A model generated the notes under the pieces. It was not told the origin of the DNA. It made no database searches and saw only the letters and a list, made by a program, of their open reading frames with translations. Source: a bacterium (GTDB lineage: Bacteria > Planctomycetota > UBA1135 > GCA-002686595). Taken from it: 64,000 nucleotides of DNA. The position numbers and the translations under genes are program-made. The stretch lies in contig JAUIDW010000001.1 of the NCBI GenBank assembly GCA_030428395.1, positions 1-64,000 on the forward strand, in the 5' to 3' direction. Numbering within the stretch: the stretch's first letter is position 1; every line of letters starts with the position of its first letter. Shown here piece by piece: positions 5,509 through 14,796 of the stretch.

Positions 5509-6582
5509 GTGAAGCACCTCCTGAAGACCCGCCTGCGCGACCTGTACGCGCGCACGCTGTTCCACACCGGCCTCCACGCCGTCGTCGACCGGCTGATGCC
5601 GCGGCGGCTGACGATCCTGGCCGGGCACTGCGTGGCCGGGCCGGGCTCGAACGGGGTGCTGCCGCCGGACATGAAGATCTCGAGCGGGCGGCTGGAGGAG
5701 ATCCTGACGTGGCTCGGCCGGCGCTACGACCTGCACACCGCCTCGAGCGGCTGGCGCGCGCTGCGGGCCGGCGAGGGGCGGCGCGGGCTCGTCGCGCTGA
5801 CGATGGACGACGGCTACCGCGACAACGCGACCGCGATGCTGCCGCTGCTGCGGCGGCTGGGCGCGCCGGCGACCGTGTTCCTCGAGACGCGGCCGCTGGA
5901 CGAGCGGCGCGTGAACTGGACGCACAAGTACTTCTGGATCGCGGGCAAGCTCGAGCCGGAGCCGTTCCTGGACCGCTACCGGCGGACCTGCGCGAAGAAG
6001 CAGCGCCAGGGGCTCCTGAAGGTGCTCGAGGCGATGGTCCGGCCGGGCTTCAAGTTCGACTACCACTTCAAGCGCTACCTGAAGTACGACGCCGACCCCG
6101 AGGACCGCGACCGCACGATCGACGCGCTGTTCGCGGAGCTGGGCGGCGACGAGCGCGCGCTCTGCGACGAGCTCTACCTGGACTGGGACGAGGCCCGGGA
6201 GCTGCGCGACGGGGGCTGCGAGCTGGGCTGCCACACGCGCGGGCACGTGATCCTGTCGCGGGCCGCGGACGACGAGGCTCTCCGCGCGGAGACCGCCGGG
6301 GCGGCCGAGGACATGCGCGCGGCGCTGGGCGCGCGCGCGGGTGCCTTCGCCTATCCCTTCGGGCGCCGCTGGGACTTCGACGACGCCTCCGTGGAGGCCG
6401 TGCGGGCCGCGGGGTTCGACCTGGCCGTCACCACGCACGCGGGGACGAACGGCCCCGGCGACGACCCGTTCCGCCTGAAGCGCCTGATGATCGACGACGG
6501 CGCGCAGCTGCACCTGCTCGTGGCGGAGGCCTGCGGCGGCTTCGACCTCCTGCGCCTCTTCGGCGTCGACCTGTCGGAGTGA
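5509..6582 (+). CDS. Polysaccharide deacetylase (NodB/CE4-like)
   Basis: 357 residues from a GTG at 5509. The NodB-type motif 1 is visible as LTMDDGYRDN, with the paired aspartates (catalytic base and metal ligand). Motif 2 follows as HTRGH (metal histidines), and motif 3 as FAYPFGRRWDFDD. CE4 enzymes remove N- or O-acetyl groups from glycans using a divalent metal. There is no signal peptide, and a roughly 100-residue insert sits between motifs 1 and 2, so it may act on cytoplasmic or lipid-linked precursors. It probably forms an operon with the GNAT gene upstream. Confidence 0.85.
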   Translation: MKHLLKTRLRDLYARTLFHTGLHAVVDRLMPRRLTILAGHCVAGPGSNGVLPPDMKISSGRLEEILTWLGRRYDLHTASSGWRALRAGEGRRGLVALTMDDGYRDNATAMLPLLRRLGAPATVFLETRPLDERRVNWTHKYFWIAGKLEPEPFLDRYRRTCAKKQRQGLLKVLEAMVRPGFKFDYHFKRYLKYDADPEDRDRTIDALFAELGGDERALCDELYLDWDEARELRDGGCELGCHTRGHVILSRAADDEALRAETAGAAEDMRAALGARAGAFAYPFGRRWDFDDASVEAVRAAGFDLAVTTHAGTNGPGDDPFRLKRLMIDDGAQLHLLVAEACGGFDLLRLFGVDLSE

Positions 6583-6621
6583 GGCCCCGCGCCGCGCGCG
6601 CGGGGACCGCCGACGGCGGCG

Positions 6622-6753
6622 CTAGAAGATGTTGTAGATGAACGGCGCCGACTCGTCCCCGCTGCCCAGCATGGCGACGACGACGAGCAGGATCGCGACG
6701 AGCACGATCGGGGCGACGATCCAAATCCAGTTTTCCTTGAGGAACTTGCCCAT
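6622..6753 (-). CDS. DUF5989-like small membrane protein
   Basis: A 43-residue protein: MGKFLKENWIWI, one transmembrane helix (VAPIVLVAILLVVVAML), a short SGDES turn and the C-terminus APFIYNIF. The pattern (amphipathic start, one helix, terminal APFIY-x-hydrophobic-F) is that of the DUF5989 family, which is repeatedly found next to carbamoyltransferase and SGNH hydrolase genes. It is the last gene of the minus-strand module, 47 bases after the hydrolase, whose own C-terminus ends APFIYTLF. Role unknown; it may hold or recruit module partners at the membrane. Confidence 0.72.
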   Translation of the reverse strand: MGKFLKENWIWIVAPIVLVAILLVVVAMLGSGDESAPFIYNIF

Positions 6754-6800
6754 CGCGGGGGCCTCGGGGCGCGTGGCGCCGGTTGCGGAACGGTGCGGTC

Positions 6801-8372
6801 CTAGAACAGCGTGTAGATGAACGGGGCGACGAGCGGGGAGCTGGCCGCGACGACGAGCAGGCTGCCCACCGTCAGGAGCACGACGACCAGCGGCATCAGG
6901 TACCAGTGGCCGCGCAGGGTGAAGGCCTTGAGCAGCTCGGTGATCGTGAGCAGGCGGCGGCCCAGCTTGTAGGCGACGAAGCCGAGGATGGCCGCGACGG
7001 CCAGGACCCCGACCAGCGACGAGAAGGCGGGCGGCAGGTTCCCGAGCAGGGCGCCGCCGCCGAGGACGATGGCGAAGACCGCGGAGAGCAGCAGGCCGAC
7101 CTTGATCGGCGGCTGCCAGACGGGCTCGTCGCGGTAGGTCGCGATGTACAGGCCCGACAGGGCGACCCACAGCACGGCGAAGAGCTTCATCCAGCCGGGG
7201 ATGCCGCCCTCGTCGGGGGGCGTCGGGAGCTGCGCGACGACCTGCTTCGGCGTGCGGTCGCCCAGGGCGCCCAGCTTGTCGAGCTCGTCGTGCAGGAAGG
7301 AGGCGAAGGCGCGGTTGCCCGCGGCGTTCAGGTGCCAGTCGCGCTGGTAGTAGACGTCCTCGCCGGAGCGCTGCAGCGCCTTGAGGGTCGAGCGGGCGTC
7401 GAGCGTCTCGAGGCCCGCGGCCGCGGACATCCGCAGGAAGTCGTCGACGGGCTTGTCGGGCGCGAAGCCGGCGCCGTCGGACAGGCCCAGCGCGCCGGCG
7501 GCGAAGCCGGCGGCGTAGTCGGCGTCGACCACGCTGTGCGAGGGGATCGGCGCGACGACGCAGGCCGCCCCGAGCTCGTCGCACTTGGTCTTCAGGGCCT
7601 TCAGCGCGCCCTCGGTGCGGGCGTAGGCGTCGGCCATGAACTCGGGCGCGGGCTCGAGCGCGGCGCCGAACTCGCGCAGGATCGGGCGGGAGCCGCCGGC
7701 CGGCGTGAACAGGAAGGACTCGTCCGGCGCCTGGCCGCCGGAGAACAGGCGCAGCGTGGCGACCTTGTCCGTCCACGGCTTCTCGGACGGCGCGGCGAGC
7801 TCACCCGTCGCCAGGCCGCCGTCGGGCCGGAACATGGGCTTCGCCTGGCCGCCGGCGTAGGTCAGCTGGCCGTTCCAGTAGAGGTCGTTCTCGTAGGGGA
7901 ACAGCAGCACGAGGTCGGGGTCGTAGGCGTCGCCGTGCTCGAGCAGCCAGGCGACCTGCTGGTCGGTCGAGTAGCCCTCGGTGCCGGCGTTCACGACGTC
8001 CACCTCGCGGCCCTCGGCGGCCCACCAGTGGCGCAGCTGGTCCACGAACAGGTCGCGCCGGTTCACGGAGAAGCCCTGGGTGAAGGAGTCGCCCAGCATG
8101 ACCACGCGGAACGCGCCGTCGGGCTTGACCTTCGAGGGGCGCTCGTCGTCGCGCAGGCCGTCGGAGTTGATGGCGAAGTCGACGGTGTAGGAGGTGCCGA
8201 GCACCTTGCGGCTGCCGGTCATGCCCGGCACCAGCTGCCAGCCCAGGCGGGCGTGCGGCTCGAGCCGGGTGGGCGGCGGGCCCATCCCGATCAGGCGCAG
8301 CCCGCCCTCGAAGACGAGCAGGCCCATGAGGAGGCTGACGAGGATCGCCAGGACGACGTTGATGGCTCTCAC
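6801..8372 (-). CDS. SGNH/GDSL hydrolase with multi-helix C-terminus and fused DUF5989-like tail
   Basis: 523 residues from a GTG. A signal-anchor helix (4-24) leads into an SGNH domain: block I GDS with Ser96, and block V D345-W-H347 (RDWHLNAAGN). Helices follow at about 397-413, 424-446, 450-470 and 488-511. The last 45 residues (LLKAFTLRG through APFIYTLF) are homologous in pattern to the 43-residue DUF5989-like protein just downstream, so that domain appears both fused and free. SGNH enzymes in glycan clusters act as O-acetyltransferases or esterases, here on the periplasmic side. It begins 13 bases after the carbamoyltransferase stop, in the same operon. Confidence 0.8.
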   Translation of the reverse strand: MRAINVVLAILVSLLMGLLVFEGGLRLIGMGPPPTRLEPHARLGWQLVPGMTGSRKVLGTSYTVDFAINSDGLRDDERPSKVKPDGAFRVVMLGDSFTQGFSVNRRDLFVDQLRHWWAAEGREVDVVNAGTEGYSTDQQVAWLLEHGDAYDPDLVLLFPYENDLYWNGQLTYAGGQAKPMFRPDGGLATGELAAPSEKPWTDKVATLRLFSGGQAPDESFLFTPAGGSRPILREFGAALEPAPEFMADAYARTEGALKALKTKCDELGAACVVAPIPSHSVVDADYAAGFAAGALGLSDGAGFAPDKPVDDFLRMSAAAGLETLDARSTLKALQRSGEDVYYQRDWHLNAAGNRAFASFLHDELDKLGALGDRTPKQVVAQLPTPPDEGGIPGWMKLFAVLWVALSGLYIATYRDEPVWQPPIKVGLLLSAVFAIVLGGGALLGNLPPAFSSLVGVLAVAAILGFVAYKLGRRLLTITELLKAFTLRGHWYLMPLVVVLLTVGSLLVVAASSPLVAPFIYTLF

Positions 8373-8385
8373 GGCTGCGGGACCT

Positions 8386-10176
8386 CTAGCTGACGAGCTC
8401 GGTGACGGTGTCGCCTTCGTGGCGCAGGACGAACTTCGTCTCGGCGATCTTCTTCTTGGCCTTGTCGCTGACGACGTAGTTGTTCAGGAAGAGCAGGTCC
8501 ATGCCGGACAGGCTGAACGTGTTGAAGGCGTGCGAGGGGTGGTCGACGATGGGCTCGCCCTTCAGGTTGAAGGACGTGTTCATCACGACCGGGACGCCGG
8601 TCAGCTCGCCGAAGCGCTCCACCATGCGGTGGTAGACCGGCGCGCTCTCCTTCATGATCGTCTGCAGGCGGCCGGAGCCGTCCTCGTGCGTGATGGCCGG
8701 CAGCACGTCGCGCTTCTCCTCGCGCACGGGCGCGACGAACAGCATGAAGCGCGCCGGGATGTGGCGCGAGGCCTGCGGGAACTCGAAGAACTCGTCGGCG
8801 CGCTCCTCGATGACCGAGGGGGCGAACGGGCGGAAGGCCTCGCGGAACTTGATCTTGGCGTTCAGCTTGTCCTTCATCTCGGCCTTGCGCGGGTCCGCGA
8901 TGATCGAGCGGCTGCCCAGCGCGCGCGGGCCCCACTCCATGCGGCCGCGGAACCAGCCGCAGACCTTGCCGTCGACCAGGGCGCGCGCGACGTAGTCGGC
9001 GAACTCCTCGTCGTCGTCGATCTTCTCGAAGGGGATCTCGTACTTCCGCAGGAAGTCCTCGATCTCCGCGTCGGTGTACTCGGTGCCCAGGTACGAGTGG
9101 TCCAGCACCGGCCCGCGCGGCTGGTCGAGCAGGTGGTTGTAGGCCCAGTAGGCCGCGCCGACCGCGCCGCCGTCGTCGCCGGGGGCGGGGTGGATGTACA
9201 GGTCCTCGAAGGGCCCGTCGCGCAGCAGCTTGTAGTTGGCGACCGAGTTCAGCGACACGCCGCCCGCCATGACCACCTTGTCCATGCCGGTGGTCTCGTG
9301 CAGGTAGCGGTGCATCTTCATGAGGATCTCCTCGGTGACCCTCTGGATCGACGCCGCGATGTCGCAGTAGAACGGGTCGAGCGACTTGTCGCTCTTCTTC
9401 GGGTCCCGCGGCGGGCGGCCGAAGTGCTCGCCGAACGCGTCGGTCAGCGTCGTGTCGCGCGAGTAGTGGTACGCGAAGTACCGCATGTCGTGCCACACGC
9501 TGCCGTCCTCGGCGACGTCGATCAGCTCGTAGATCTTGTCGACCATCGTGGGCTTGCCGTAGGGGTGCATGCCCATCAGCTTGTACTCGCCCTCGTTCAC
9601 CTCGAAGCCGCAGTAGGCGGTGAACGCGGAGTACAGGAGCCCCAGGGAGTGCGGGAAGCGCAGCTCCTTGAAGATCTCGATCTTGTTGTCGCGCCCGACG
9701 CCCATGGTGCCGGTGCTCCACTCGCCGGCGCCGTCGACGGTCAGGATGGCGGCGTCCTTGAACGGCGACGTGAAGAAGCTGCACGCCGCGTGCGACATGT
9801 GGTGGTCGGCGAACAGGAACTTGGACGCAGGGATGCCCAGCTCGCGGGACATCATCGACTTGATCCAGAGCTTGTCCGAGATCCACCGCTGCATCGACTC
9901 GCGGAACACGGCGGCCGACTTCGGGAAGGTCGCCATGGCCGTGAGGAGCATGCGCTCGAACTTCACGAACGGCTTCTCGTAGAAGACGACGTAGTCGACG
10001 TCCTGGATCGTGACCTTGCCCTGCTTCAGCACGAAGTCGATGGCGAGCTTGGGGAAGCCCGAGTCGTGCTTGCGACGGCTGATGCGCTCCTCGGCGATCG
10101 CCGCGACCAGGACGCCGTCCTGGACGAGGGCGGCGGCGGAGTCGTGGTAGTAGAACGAGAGCCCGAGGATGTTCAT
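8386..10176 (-). CDS. Carbamoyltransferase (NodU/CmcH/TobZ family)
   Basis: 596 residues. The N-terminal Kae1-like ATPase half starts MNILGLSFYYHDSAA with the metal histidine His11, and has H125-H126-M-S-H129 and the phosphate loop TVDGAGEWSTG. The C-terminal carbamoyltransferase half has GRMEWGPRALGSRS (YrdC-like Arg-rich substrate site) and NTSFN. The enzyme makes carbamoyl-AMP from carbamoyl phosphate and ATP and transfers the carbamoyl group to a hydroxyl, often on a sugar. The ATG at 10176 shares one base with the preceding stop (TGATG), so an upstream extension of this frame was rejected. The acceptor is likely a glycan or glycolipid, by context. Confidence 0.92.
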   Translation of the reverse strand: MNILGLSFYYHDSAAALVQDGVLVAAIAEERISRRKHDSGFPKLAIDFVLKQGKVTIQDVDYVVFYEKPFVKFERMLLTAMATFPKSAAVFRESMQRWISDKLWIKSMMSRELGIPASKFLFADHHMSHAACSFFTSPFKDAAILTVDGAGEWSTGTMGVGRDNKIEIFKELRFPHSLGLLYSAFTAYCGFEVNEGEYKLMGMHPYGKPTMVDKIYELIDVAEDGSVWHDMRYFAYHYSRDTTLTDAFGEHFGRPPRDPKKSDKSLDPFYCDIAASIQRVTEEILMKMHRYLHETTGMDKVVMAGGVSLNSVANYKLLRDGPFEDLYIHPAPGDDGGAVGAAYWAYNHLLDQPRGPVLDHSYLGTEYTDAEIEDFLRKYEIPFEKIDDDEEFADYVARALVDGKVCGWFRGRMEWGPRALGSRSIIADPRKAEMKDKLNAKIKFREAFRPFAPSVIEERADEFFEFPQASRHIPARFMLFVAPVREEKRDVLPAITHEDGSGRLQTIMKESAPVYHRMVERFGELTGVPVVMNTSFNLKGEPIVDHPSHAFNTFSLSGMDLLFLNNYVVSDKAKKKIAETKFVLRHEGDTVTELVS

Positions 10177-10385
10177 CAGTCCTGCCTCCGCGCGGCCTGC
10201 AGGGTCGAGTTGTCCTCCTCCCACGTGACCCAGTTGCCGTTCGCCTGCTTGGCGATGTGCAGCGGGTCGGCGAACAGCCGGTAGAGGAGCGCGAACGGTC
10301 CCAGGAGGACGAAGTAGAGCAGGGTCAGGAGCACGCGGGACAGCATGTTCCCGAAGCGCTCCGTGAACTCGATGAGGAGCTTCAT
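10176..10385 (-). CDS. Small membrane protein of the carbamoyltransferase module
   Basis: 69 residues: an amphipathic start (MKLLIEFTERFGNMLSR), one hydrophobic helix (VLLTLLYFVLLGPFALLYRLF), then a conserved-looking cytoplasmic tail containing NGNWVTWEED and ending LQAARRQD. Similar small proteins regularly precede NodU-type carbamoyltransferases together with DUF5989 genes; I recall the pattern but know no experimentally assigned function. It is the first gene of the four-gene minus-strand operon and is coupled to the carbamoyltransferase by a TGATG overlap. Confidence 0.7.
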   Translation of the reverse strand: MKLLIEFTERFGNMLSRVLLTLLYFVLLGPFALLYRLFADPLHIAKQANGNWVTWEEDNSTLQAARRQD

Positions 10386-10731
10386 GCGGGGGGAGGTGAA
10401 GGACCTCGAGGGTGGCGGGACGGTGGAGAGGAGAGTGGGCGGTCGGGCCGCCGGACGGGGTGCGCGGCGGCCCGGGGCCGGGCCGGAGGGCGGGGCGGCC
10501 CGGGGCGGCCGGCGGGGCCGCCGGAGACCGGGTTCACCCGCGCGCCGCGGGGGCTGCGGGCCGCACGAACGCCAGGATCGACGGCGAGGAGCGGAGAAGT
10601 ATAGCGGGGGCGGGAACCGGGCGTCAGACCCGGGTCCCGCGGTCCGGGAAAACCTACCCCGTGCGGCGGCGTCCGGCCGGGCCGCGGTCGCGGGGTCGTC
10701 CCGGGCGGGAGCATCGGGTCGCCGGAGGGCC
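10386..10731. other. Intergenic region upstream of the carbamoyltransferase operon
   Basis: 346 bases without a convincing gene. It holds the minus-strand promoter described at 10598-10627 and the roughly 200-base leader of the carbamoyltransferase operon. No terminator hairpin with a T tract was seen. Confidence 0.6.
10598..10627 (-). promoter_or_regulatory. Candidate sigma-70-type promoter of the carbamoyltransferase operon
   Basis: Reading the minus strand, CTGACG (10627-10622), an 18-base spacer and TATACT (10603-10598), the last preceded by GC. This is the best -35/-10 pair in the window. It would start a leader of about 200 bases. Confidence 0.45.
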
Positions 10732-12069
10732 TCACCGGATCGCCAGCGAGCCCTTGTACAGCTCCCCCCACTCCAGGTGCCCGTTGCCGTTGTCGTCCCG
10801 CAGGATGTCGACGCTGAGCTGGGTCCCGGGCTCGGCCGAGGCGACCAGCTGGGCCAGGTCCAGGGGCGACTCCACGCTCCAGGCCTGCGAGTGCCCCTGG
10901 AGGCGGACCGCGTCGATCACGTCCCCCTGGCGCAGGCCGAGCTCGGCCGCGGCCCCGGCGGCGTCGACCCGCAGCACCTGGACGAAGGGGCGCCGGCCGA
11001 TGGCGAGCTGCCCGACGACGAGGCCCAGGCGCTCGAAGAGGATGGCGTCGACCCGGTTCCAGCCCTGCACGCGGACCGTCGCCCGGCGGCCGTCGCGCAC
11101 CACCTCGAGCCGGACGGGGCGCCCGGGGTGCTGGGCGGCGCGGAGGCGCTGGAACTGCTCGAGGCCGTCGCGCAGCGGCTCGCCGGCGAAGGCGACCGGG
11201 CGGTCCCCCGGCAGCAGCCCGGCCAGGCCCGCCGGCCCGCCGTGGACGACGGCCGCCACCAGGAGGCCCTCGGCGTCCGCCTCGACCTCGAAGCCGAACC
11301 AGGCGCGGGCCGCCGCGGCCCCGAGCAGCTGGTCCTGGAGCACCCGCGCGACCGTGTCGACGGGGATGGCGTACCCCATGTTCTCGGCGCCGATCTTGGC
11401 GACGGTGGTGATGCCGATCAGCTCGCCCAGCATGTTCAGCAGCGGCCCGCCGCTCGTGCCGGGGTTGATCGAGGCGTCCGTCTGGATCAGGTCGCTGAAC
11501 AGGAACCCCTGCCCGGCGGAGATGTTGCGGTGCAGGCCGGACACGATGCCCGACGAGACGCTCAGGCCCTTGCCGTAGGAGTTCCCGATCACGAGCACGC
11601 GCTCGCCGATCTCCACGTCCGACGAGGTCCCCAGGCGCACGGTCTGCAGCGGGCGGTCGACCTCGACCTTCAGCAGCGCGAGGTCCTGGTCCGCGTCGAA
11701 CGACAGCAGGCGGGCCTCGTGCTCGTCCTCGTGCACCTCCGGGTCGAAGCGCACGCGCAGCGGGCCGACCGCGCCCGCCACGACGTGGTAGTTCGTGACG
11801 ATGTAGCCGTCCTCGTAGACCACGACGCCGGAGCCGGTCGTGGTACGCGTGGTGTGGCGCGGCTCGCCGCCGAGGGAGAAGCCCTGGTGGACCGCGAGGT
11901 CCGCCTCGACGCACACCACGGCGGCGCGGGCGTCGCGGACCACGAGCACCTCGGGCGAGATGCGCGGGTTGCCCGTGCGGTACGAGTCGACCTGGGCGCG
12001 GGCGGGCGGGGTCGCGCCGAGCGCGAGCAGCGCGGCGAGCGCGGCGGTGGGAGTGCGGGCCGGGTGCAT
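10732..12069 (-). CDS. HtrA/DegP-like serine protease with PDZ domains and a C-terminal EF-hand loop
   Basis: 445 residues with a signal peptide (MHPARTPTAALAALLALG, cleavage near ARAQ). The trypsin-like domain has the HtrA triad His95 (TNYHVVAG), Asp129 (DQDLALLKV) and Ser206 (NPGTSGGPL, where GNSGGP is more usual). Two PDZ-like regions follow (GGPAGLAGLLPGDRPV and AAAELGLRQGDVIDAV). Residues 425-436, DDNGNGHLEWGE, match a 12-residue EF-hand calcium loop at positions 1, 3, 5, 6, 8 and 12. It is a periplasmic or surface quality-control protease, perhaps calcium-responsive. The ATG at 12069 is chosen because it starts the signal peptide. Confidence 0.88.
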   Translation of the reverse strand: MHPARTPTAALAALLALGATPPARAQVDSYRTGNPRISPEVLVVRDARAAVVCVEADLAVHQGFSLGGEPRHTTRTTTGSGVVVYEDGYIVTNYHVVAGAVGPLRVRFDPEVHEDEHEARLLSFDADQDLALLKVEVDRPLQTVRLGTSSDVEIGERVLVIGNSYGKGLSVSSGIVSGLHRNISAGQGFLFSDLIQTDASINPGTSGGPLLNMLGELIGITTVAKIGAENMGYAIPVDTVARVLQDQLLGAAAARAWFGFEVEADAEGLLVAAVVHGGPAGLAGLLPGDRPVAFAGEPLRDGLEQFQRLRAAQHPGRPVRLEVVRDGRRATVRVQGWNRVDAILFERLGLVVGQLAIGRRPFVQVLRVDAAGAAAELGLRQGDVIDAVRLQGHSQAWSVESPLDLAQLVASAEPGTQLSVDILRDDNGNGHLEWGELYKGSLAIR

Positions 12070-12345
12070 GGTGTCTGCGCGGCGGGGTCGGCCGCCGCCG
12101 GGCCGGGCAGCGCCGCCCCGCCGGATCGTCGTCCGGGGCCGGGGCGCGCCTGGAGGGGCTACGCGGGGCGGGCCCGATCGTGAGCACGCCCGGGCGGGAA
12201 GGGGCGCGGGGAGGGCCGCCGGGGCGTCGTCGGCGCGGCGGGGGACACGCGGCAGGCCGCGGCCGGGCGGGCCCCGGGGGTCCGGACGCCGGCCCGCTGG
12301 GCGGGGCACCGGGGAGCCGGGGGGGGAGCCGGGGGCGGCGCGGAG

Positions 12346-12422
<77 letters not shown>

Positions 12423-12444
12423 ACTTCGCGTTCCGCGGCCGCGG

Positions 12445-12450
12445 AAGATA
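12445..12450 (-). promoter_or_regulatory. Candidate -10 element for tRNA-Val
   Basis: TATCTT on the minus strand, preceded by CCC, 22 bases upstream of the mature tRNA 5' end. No good -35 hexamer is visible 16-18 bases further upstream. Confidence 0.35.
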
Positions 12451-12482
12451 GGGCTCCGGACGCCCGAGGGCGAGCCCTTTTT
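12451..12482 (+). terminator. Plus-strand intrinsic-terminator-like hairpin upstream of ald
   Basis: GGGCTC (12451-12456) pairs with GAGCCC (12472-12477), with an alternative inner CGCCC/GGGCG pairing. It is followed directly by five T (12478-12482). No plus-strand gene lies within 2 kb upstream, so it would stop antisense or stray transcription before ald. Confidence 0.4.
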
Positions 12483-12568
12483 CGGGGGGCCCGCGAGGCC
12501 GGGCGAACGGGCCGCGCGCGGGCCGCCGGGAGGGCCGCTCCGCTGGAGCCAACGGGCCGGTCCGCCGC

Positions 12569-12574
12569 TACACT
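12569..12574 (+). promoter_or_regulatory. Candidate -10 element for ald
   Basis: TACACT preceded by GC (CCGCTACACT), about 57 bases before the ald start. No clear -35 partner. Confidence 0.35.
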
Positions 12575-12630
12575 CGGCCGCCCTTCCCCGCGGGGCCCGC
12601 GCTCCGCCCTGTCCGCCCGGAGGTCGTCCG

Positions 12631-13749
<1,119 letters not shown>

Positions 13750-13926
13750 GGGCCCCGGGCGCGTCCACCGCACGACCCCCGCCACCCCGGATCCCGGGCC
13801 GCGCGGCTCAGGACCGCCCCGCCCGTCGTCCGAAAGGGCCGAGGCGGCCCCCGCGGTCCGCCCCACCTTCGCCCGGCCCGGCCCTCCGCGGTACGCCCCA
13901 GCTCCATCCGGCCCGGTCCGCCCTCC

Positions 13927-14796
13927 GTGCTCGACTCCCCCGTTCCCCTCGACCTGTCCTCCGCCGGCGCCGAGCCGGGGCTCGGGCCGGCCGGCGTGCT
14001 CGCCCTGGCCGTGGTCCAGGGGCTGGCGGAGTTCCTGCCGATCAGCTCGTCGGGCCACCTGGTGCTCGCCCAGACGGCCATGGGGCTCACCCGCGGCGGC
14101 CTCACGCTCGACGTGGCGCTGCACGTGGGCACGCTGGTGGCCGTCGTCGCGTACTACCGCCGCGACCTGGCCTTCCTGGTGCGCGAGGCGCTCGCCGGCC
14201 GCGTCCAGCTCGTGCTGTCCCTGGCGGTCGGCACGCTGCCCGCCGCCGTGGTGGGGCTGGCGCTGCGGGGGCGCTTCGAGGCGCTGTTCCACTCCGTCCG
14301 GCCCGTGGGGGCGTTCCTGCTCGTCACGGCGGGGCTGCTCGTGTGGGGCGAGGCGGCGCGCCGCCGGCTCGCGGCGGGCGCCGCGGCGCCTCCCGCGGGA
14401 GTGCCGGGGCCGGCGGGGATGCGGGACCCGGGGCTCCTGGACGCGCTGTGGATCGGCTGCGCGCAGGCCCTGGCGATCCTGCCCGGGATCTCGCGCGCCG
14501 GGGCGACGATCGCGGTCGGGCTCGCCCGCGGGCTGTCGCCGGAGAGCGCGGCGCGCTTCTCGTTCCTGCTGAGCCTGCCCGTGGTGCTCGGCGCCGCGCT
14601 GCTCGAGCTGCCGCGGGCGGTCGAGGAGGGCTTCCAGGCCTGCTCGCGCGGCAGCGCCCTGCTCGGCATGGCGCTCGCCGCGGGCGTCGGCTGGGCCTCC
14701 CTGGCCCTGCTCGTCACGACCCTGCGGCGCGGGGCCTTCCGCTGGTTCGCGGTCTACTGCGCGGTCGTCGGCGTGGCGGCCCTGCTGCTCGGCTGA
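13927..14796 (+). CDS. uppP: Undecaprenyl-diphosphatase (BacA/UppP)
   Basis: 289 residues, all membrane helices. Motif 1, GLAEFLPISSSGHL, carries the conserved Glu and the PISSSGH phosphate-binding run. Motif 2 is PGISRAG, with Ser and Arg near the second repeat. The protein dephosphorylates undecaprenyl pyrophosphate at the periplasmic face, recycling the carrier used by peptidoglycan and by the glycan pathways in this window. Slightly longer than average because of a 16-residue N-terminal extension and an inserted Ala/Pro-rich loop. GTG start at 13927. The stop is only four bases from the convergent amidase stop. Confidence 0.93.
   Translation: MLDSPVPLDLSSAGAEPGLGPAGVLALAVVQGLAEFLPISSSGHLVLAQTAMGLTRGGLTLDVALHVGTLVAVVAYYRRDLAFLVREALAGRVQLVLSLAVGTLPAAVVGLALRGRFEALFHSVRPVGAFLLVTAGLLVWGEAARRRLAAGAAAPPAGVPGPAGMRDPGLLDALWIGCAQALAILPGISRAGATIAVGLARGLSPESAARFSFLLSLPVVLGAALLELPRAVEEGFQACSRGSALLGMALAAGVGWASLALLVTTLRRGAFRWFAVYCAVVGVAALLLG

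What the first reader, a model, noticed from the sequence alone, without database searches (positions are those of the whole stretch)
6622..10385. Carbamoyltransferase module with DUF5989 both fused and free
Four minus-strand genes from one promoter-like site: small membrane protein, NodU-type carbamoyltransferase, SGNH hydrolase ending in a DUF5989-like tail (APFIYTLF), and a free 43-residue DUF5989-like protein (APFIYNIF). The conserved terminal APFIY motif suggests an interaction surface. The enzyme pair would carbamoylate and esterify or de-esterify a surface glycan. The role of these small proteins is undescribed as far as I know.
Basis: partly seen in the sequence, partly recalled or inferred. 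Interest (0 to 1): 0.65.

Follow-up and report, generated by a model that had tools for sequence, protein, structure and literature searches.

The report
Tyrosine-tailed carbamoyl relay operon
A planctomycete operon pairs a carbamoyl-adding enzyme with an outward-facing esterase-like enzyme and tiny membrane proteins whose tails carry the same tyrosine motif that other bacteria use to hand acetyl or alanyl groups across the membrane, so it is probably a new version of that relay that moves carbamoyl groups onto surface molecules.

Summary
In detail: four minus-strand genes at 6622-10385, with DUF5989 (PF19451) both fused to an SGNH protein and free. The first gene is related to SxtJ. The operon is therefore a variant of the known but unexplained sxtI-J-K-L gene group.

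The tails FIYTLF and FIYNIF match FXYXXF, the C-terminal 'acyl shuttle' hexapeptide whose tyrosine carries the acyl group from an MBOAT enzyme to an SGNH enzyme (PatA, DltX). Only the tail tyrosine and one transmembrane proline are invariant across divergent DUF5989 proteins.

In 294 planctomycete genomes, 115 of 117 with DUF5989 have the carbamoyltransferase family. 28 have no MBOAT, including three single-contig genomes. All six MBOATs of this genome carry or adjoin their own shuttle tail. The linked carbamoyltransferases form one clade, and clade members without a local DUF5989 carry it elsewhere wherever I looked.

Best reading: a tyrosine relay for carbamoyl groups (carbamoyltransferase to tyrosine to SGNH serine to an extracytoplasmic acceptor). 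Carbamoyl-tyrosine and the membrane crossing are inferred, not shown. The SGNH keeps the hydrolase-type glycine that PatB and OatA have replaced, so an esterase or decarbamoylase role remains open.

The parts
10176..10385 (-). SxtJ-like small membrane protein, 69 aa; corresponds to the C-terminal half of the canonical ~139-aa SxtJ
   Evidence: No Pfam hit on its own. An HMM grown from it retrieves canonical SxtJ proteins, and it matches that HMM at 1.9e-24; two canonical members found that way hit PF19588 directly.
8386..10176 (-). NodU/TobZ-type carbamoyltransferase, 596 aa
   Evidence: PF02543 4e-82 and PF16861 8e-68; NovN, GdmN and TobZ structures as nearest PDB relatives.
6801..8372 (-). 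SGNH protein (N-terminal TM, ALGX/GDSL ectodomain, three further helices, C-terminal DUF5989), 523 aa
   Evidence: PF13472, PF16822 and PF19451; AlphaFold2 model pLDDT 90, pTM 0.85.
7254..8204 (-). SGNH ectodomain; Ser96 codon 8085-8087, His347 codon 7332-7334
   Evidence: G94-D95-S96-F97, N162-D163 and H347 invariant in 45 homologues.
6804..6956 (-). fused DUF5989 segment ending APFIYTLF; Tyr520 codon 6813-6815
   Evidence: PF19451 42 bits; tail residues 516-523 invariant in 45 fusions.
6622..6753 (-). free 43-aa DUF5989 microprotein ending APFIYNIF; Tyr40 codon 6634-6636
   Evidence: PF19451 39 bits; Pro15 and Tyr40 are the only invariant columns in 36 relatives.
10598..10627 (-). sigma-70-like promoter match upstream of the operon (CTGACG-18-TATACT)
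   Evidence: a consensus match only.

Best explanation
The operon encodes a tyrosine relay that works like the DltB-DltX-DltD and PatA-PatB acylation machines, but with a NodU-type carbamoyltransferase in place of the MBOAT. The carbamoyltransferase makes carbamoyl-adenylate from carbamoyl phosphate and ATP, which is established chemistry for TobZ and GdmN. [quoted passage not shown] The tail, on the extracytoplasmic face, passes the group to the catalytic serine of the SGNH domain, to which it is fused here (inferred). The SGNH domain then carbamoylates a hydroxyl on an envelope or exported molecule (inferred). The free 43-aa protein would be a second shuttle. How the group crosses the membrane is unknown.
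For: (1) FIYTLF and FIYNIF match FXYXXF, shown in PatA and DltX to carry the acyl group on its Tyr; the genome's own MBOATs end PFIYFRF, PFVYFQF and PFIYFQF. (2) In divergent DUF5989 proteins only a TM proline and the tail Tyr are invariant. An HMM without the tail finds 72 free microproteins; 70 have a Tyr within seven residues of the end, nearly all at position 3 or 4, while the flanking F, A, P and final F vary. (3) Charge bias puts the N-terminus inside and the tail outside (K+R 3.2 against 0.06 in the canonical set). (4) Natural fusion to an SGNH domain in 50 of 80 carbamoyltransferase loci, with S96, N162, D163 and H347 invariant. (5) 115 of 117 DUF5989 genomes carry the carbamoyltransferase family (Fisher p 1e-34). 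(6) 28 have no MBOAT, 17 of them at least 96% complete and three in one contig. (7) Linked carbamoyltransferases fall in one clade; none of those sampled outside it is linked. Clade members L154, L156 and L176 have DUF5989 elsewhere in the genome. (8) The 45 DUF5989 loci with a carbamoyltransferase all have SxtJ and 27 have an SGNH; the 15 loci without it have neither.
Against: No acyl- or carbamoyl-tyrosine has been shown for DUF5989. Known relatives of the carbamoyltransferase are soluble and act on cytoplasmic substrates, and no multi-pass channel accompanies the module: no other multi-TM family besides the synteny neighbours recurs. The SGNH block II glycine that PatB and OatA replace is retained here (alignment), which fits a hydrolase. 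Profile similarity to DltX itself is weak (6 of 36, best 0.0029, no better than other TM families). 15 of 60 DUF5989 loci lie away from any carbamoyltransferase gene. The tail is modelled at low confidence and not docked. MBOAT presence also correlates with DUF5989, less strongly (odds ratio 5.6).
Confidence: 0.47

Rival explanations
1. Membrane anchor. SxtJ and DUF5989 hold the carbamoyltransferase at the inner leaflet, where it carbamoylates a lipid-linked or exported substrate directly in the cytoplasm. The tail is a binding motif, and the SGNH domain is an independent esterase or decarbamoylase.
For: Solved relatives are soluble cytoplasmic enzymes. It needs no membrane crossing by the group. 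The SGNH keeps a hydrolase-type glycine. The sxt literature lists SxtL as decarbamoylation.
Against: The tail is predicted extracytoplasmic, so it could not contact a cytoplasmic enzyme. A binding motif would keep its flanking residues, whereas only the Tyr is kept. It does not explain why the tail equals the MBOAT shuttle hexapeptide or why it is fused to the SGNH.
Confidence: 0.27
2. DUF5989 is an acyl (for example acetyl) shuttle served in trans by an MBOAT encoded elsewhere; the neighbouring carbamoyltransferase modifies the same glycan separately.
For: FXYXXF is the MBOAT/DltX motif; DUF5989 genomes are enriched in MBOATs.
Against: 28 of 117 DUF5989 genomes have no MBOAT, including three single-contig ones. 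In this genome five MBOATs end in their own hexapeptide and the sixth is followed by its own FVYRAF microprotein. MBOAT is absent from all 80 carbamoyltransferase loci.
Confidence: 0.1
3. The SGNH-DUF5989 protein runs the relay for removal or quality control: it hydrolyses carbamoyl (or acyl) groups, with the tail Tyr as a product-side or regulatory element.
For: Intact SGNH residues with a hydrolase-type block II; fold matches are mostly esterases.
Against: Fold matches cannot separate esterases from SGNH transferases. A hydrolase would not need a membrane-tail Tyr so strictly tied to the carbamoyltransferase.
Confidence: 0.1

Closest known systems
sxtI-sxtJ-sxtK-sxtL gene group of cyanobacterial saxitoxin clusters (sxtJ, K, L also in suomilide clusters)
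   Same: Carbamoyltransferase, SxtJ, a very short third protein and a GDSL/SGNH protein together; J and K are of unknown function. PF19588 is named after SxtJ. That SxtK is DUF5989 is inferred from position and size and was not tested.
   Different: Here SxtJ is cut to its C-terminal half, DUF5989 is fused to the SGNH protein, an extra free DUF5989 is present, and there is no alkaloid cluster.
DltB-DltX-DltD (teichoic acid D-alanylation)
   Same: A membrane microprotein with a C-terminal FXYXXF tail, and an SGNH partner outside.
   Different: A carbamoyltransferase and SxtJ replace the MBOAT DltB and the carrier DltC; DltX profile similarity is below cut-off.
PatA-PatB and other MBOAT-SGNH O-acetyltransferases
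   Same: Tail hexapeptide at the end of a TM helix; ALGX/SGNH partner; Tyr strictly kept.
   Different: The tail is fused to the SGNH protein rather than to the donor-side enzyme; no MBOAT; the SGNH block II glycine is retained.
TobZ, GdmN, NovN O-carbamoyltransferases
   Same: Same two-domain enzyme family.
   Different: Those act on soluble antibiotics; the window enzyme lies in a separate SxtJ/DUF5989-linked clade (the solved enzymes themselves were not in the tree).

Membership tests
DUF5989 (PF19451) | profile score above gathering cut-off | tested here: met
   42.0 and 39.0 bits against 27
NodU/CmcH carbamoyltransferase | Carbam_trans N and C domains | tested here: met
   276.8 and 227.7 bits
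NodU proper (NF041651 equivalog) | equivalog cut-off of 1000 bits | tested here: not met
   156 bits
SxtJ (PF19588) | profile score above cut-off | tested here: not met
   No hit for the 69-aa protein or this genome; related through a transitive profile covering only the C-terminal half
SGNH hydrolase superfamily | catalytic Ser, Asn and His blocks | tested here: met
   S96, N162 and H347 invariant in 45 homologues
PatB/OatA-type SGNH transferase | block II Gly replaced by Ser or Asn | tested here: not met
   Gly retained in the window protein (alignment; criterion)
DltX (PF12459) | profile score above cut-off | tested here: not met
   16.8 bits against 25; 6 of 36 members weakly
MBOAT-SGNH tyrosine relay | C-terminal FXYXXF hexapeptide on an extracytoplasmic TM end | tested here: met
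   Motif; topology by charge bias
MBOAT-SGNH tyrosine relay | MBOAT partner | tested here: not met
   None in 80 loci; absent from 28 DUF5989 genomes
MBOAT-SGNH tyrosine relay | acyl-tyrosine intermediate | not testable with these tools
   Needs mass spectrometry or labelling

The most novel reading that the evidence does not exclude
This is an MBOAT-independent transmembrane relay for carbamoyl groups: a cytoplasmic carbamoyltransferase and SxtJ load an extracytoplasmic tyrosine on DUF5989, which feeds an SGNH transferase. It would give DUF5989 and SxtJ a function in many bacterial phyla and explain the conserved sxtI-J-K-L gene group.
Probability: 0.42. Interest if true: 0.85.

Novelty: new variant of a known kind. 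Interest (0 to 1): 0.64.

Why it matters
Two protein families of unknown function (DUF5989 and SxtJ) get a concrete, testable chemical role. If right, the tyrosine shuttle known from acetylation and D-alanylation also carries carbamoyl groups, with a donor enzyme unrelated to MBOATs, and something other than an MBOAT must let the group cross the membrane. It would also mean that some SGNH genes beside carbamoyltransferases, now called lipases or decarbamoylases, may be carbamoyl transferases.

Tried and rejected
Tested whether the extra helices of the fusion are the missing N-terminal half of SxtJ, using profile-profile alignment: no support (P 0.16 and 0.27). Tested DltX homology by profile: weak and not above background TM matches. 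Searched PDB for DUF5989 relatives: only chance TM matches. Looked for a conserved multi-pass partner next to the module: the only recurring multi-TM neighbour was an UppP-like gene, seen in the family's own synteny. Rfam: nothing in 6000-11200. Followed the top fold match, CgnD of crocagin biosynthesis: it is a leader-peptide hydrolase and its carbamoyltransferase neighbour acts separately, so it was not informative. Searched the literature for DUF5989: no paper; no paper was found linking the acyl shuttle to carbamoyl. The second structure job was not used.

Full report
What is there. The window lies in a planctomycete assembly (G000; the nearest named relatives are Planctomycetota MAGs and bacterium Poly30). 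At 10385-6622, minus strand, lie a 69-aa membrane protein, a carbamoyltransferase, an SGNH protein ending APFIYTLF and a 43-aa protein ending APFIYNIF. The two tails both pass Pfam's cut-off for DUF5989. The carbamoyltransferase has both family domains, with NovN, GdmN and TobZ as its solved relatives. The SGNH protein has GDSL and ALGX matches plus DUF5989.

The small first gene. It has no Pfam hit. A profile grown from it gathers the ~139-aa neighbours of other DUF5989 loci and matches their C-terminal halves. Two of these tested members hit PF19588, SxtJ. So the operon is a variant of the sxtI-J-K-L gene group that papers describe beside carbamoyltransferases with J and K unexplained (sxtJ, K and L also cluster in suomilide producers). 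Equating DUF5989 with SxtK rests on position and size, since I did not fetch the toxin-cluster sequences.

The tail. FIYTLF and FIYNIF fit FXYXXF. In PatA the Tyr of this C-terminal hexapeptide is acetylated and feeds the SGNH protein PatB; in the Dlt system the same motif sits on the microprotein DltX. In this genome five of six MBOATs end in this motif (PFIYFRF, PFVYFQF, PFIYFQF), and the sixth, which lacks it, is followed by a 34-aa protein ending FVYRAF. Every MBOAT here therefore already has a shuttle. The three DUF5989 copies sit beside carbamoyltransferases instead.

Conservation. In 33 canonical or fused DUF5989 segments and in 36 free microproteins, the only invariant columns are one transmembrane proline and the tail tyrosine. 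In canonical loci 74 of 74 have the Tyr 3 or 4 residues from the end. To limit bias I built a profile without the last 14 residues: of 72 hits, 70 have a Tyr within seven residues of the end, nearly all at position 3 or 4, although the rest of the tail varies widely (SPFQYNVF, GEFHYDLF, GPTGYETH). One exception is cut by a contig end. The seeds for that profile had been found with a tail-containing profile, so some bias remains. Charge distribution (K+R 3.2 on the N side, 0.06 on the C side, canonical set) places the tail outside. The fusion alignment keeps S96, N162, D163 and H347, and the whole APFIYTLF tail, in all 45 members. The AlphaFold2 model (pLDDT 90, pTM 0.85) has an N-terminal helix, the ectodomain and four more long helices; the last three residues are below pLDDT 50.

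Association. Of 60 DUF5989 loci, 45 have a carbamoyltransferase nearby. All 45 have SxtJ and 27 an SGNH, while the other 15 have neither. From the other side, 80 loci found by the carbamoyltransferase alone hold SxtJ in 76, DUF5989 in 71, SGNH in 62, an SGNH-DUF5989 fusion in 50 and MBOAT in none. Seven of the eleven incomplete loci are cut by contig ends. Three others (L154, L156, L176) lack local DUF5989 but have it elsewhere in the genome, in two cases as another SGNH fusion. Hits reach Chloroflexi, Elusimicrobia, Armatimonadetes, Omnitrophota, Acidobacteria, Rokubacteria and cyanobacterial MAGs.

Genome level. In 294 planctomycete genomes, 117 have DUF5989 and 115 of these have the carbamoyltransferase family (p 1e-34); the two exceptions are G220, where the DUF5989 hits lie at contig ends, and G277, a fragmented assembly. 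28 of the 117 have no MBOAT, 17 of them at least 96% complete and three in a single contig. This argues against DUF5989 depending on MBOATs. Linked carbamoyltransferases fall in one clade with support 92; none of the sampled enzymes outside it is linked (a quick tree).

Mechanism. The simplest account is a relay: carbamoyltransferase to tail Tyr to SGNH Ser to acceptor. Chemically an aryl carbamate is a good carbamoyl donor to serine hydrolases (general knowledge, not tested here). Shown: gene set, motif, invariance, association, MBOAT independence, intact SGNH residues. Inferred: carbamoyl on Tyr, direction of transfer, acceptor, membrane crossing. The weakest step is the crossing, because no channel-like partner was found. 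The SGNH also keeps the hydrolase-type block II glycine. A membrane-anchor role with direct cytoplasmic carbamoylation is the main rival.

Novelty. The gene association is known. No paper in the library mentions DUF5989, and none was found tying the acyl shuttle to carbamoyl transfer. I file it as a new variant of the tyrosine-relay kind, failing the MBOAT membership feature.

Noticed in passing
L138 and L151, about 9750-10660; also L108-L167: Fusion loci carry up to five extra free DUF5989-like microproteins in a row downstream, with quickly diverging tails that keep the tyrosine; 35 of 50 fusion loci have at least one.
   Followed up: partly
L016:5060-6357 (G000:C177): A planctomycete MBOAT without the C-terminal hexapeptide is followed at once by a 34-aa protein ending FVYRAF, a DltX-like arrangement that Pfam's DltX model does not recognise.
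   Followed up: no
L010:620-5575 (G000:C317): A second, divergent module in the same genome: 54-aa DUF5989 (FVYTVF), a carbamoyltransferase on a long branch, a 261-aa protein with weak ferritin-like matches and an SxtJ-like C-terminus, and an SGNH protein.
   Followed up: partly
L079, L085, L087, L092: DUF5989 genes without a nearby carbamoyltransferase lie next to a nadD-like gene in several families; the reason is unknown.
   Followed up: no
L052, L053, L058, L059, L069: In another family (f23) the DUF5989 gene has separated from SxtJ and the carbamoyltransferase, which sit together on another contig of the same genomes.
   Followed up: partly
window 10732-14796: Downstream synteny is shared by many relatives: trypsin-like protease, alanine dehydrogenase-like protein and an UppP-like undecaprenyl-diphosphatase.
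   Followed up: no
L013:11041-11997: A 318-aa membrane protein ends GYVYTLF, close to but not matching the shuttle motif; possibly chance.
   Followed up: no
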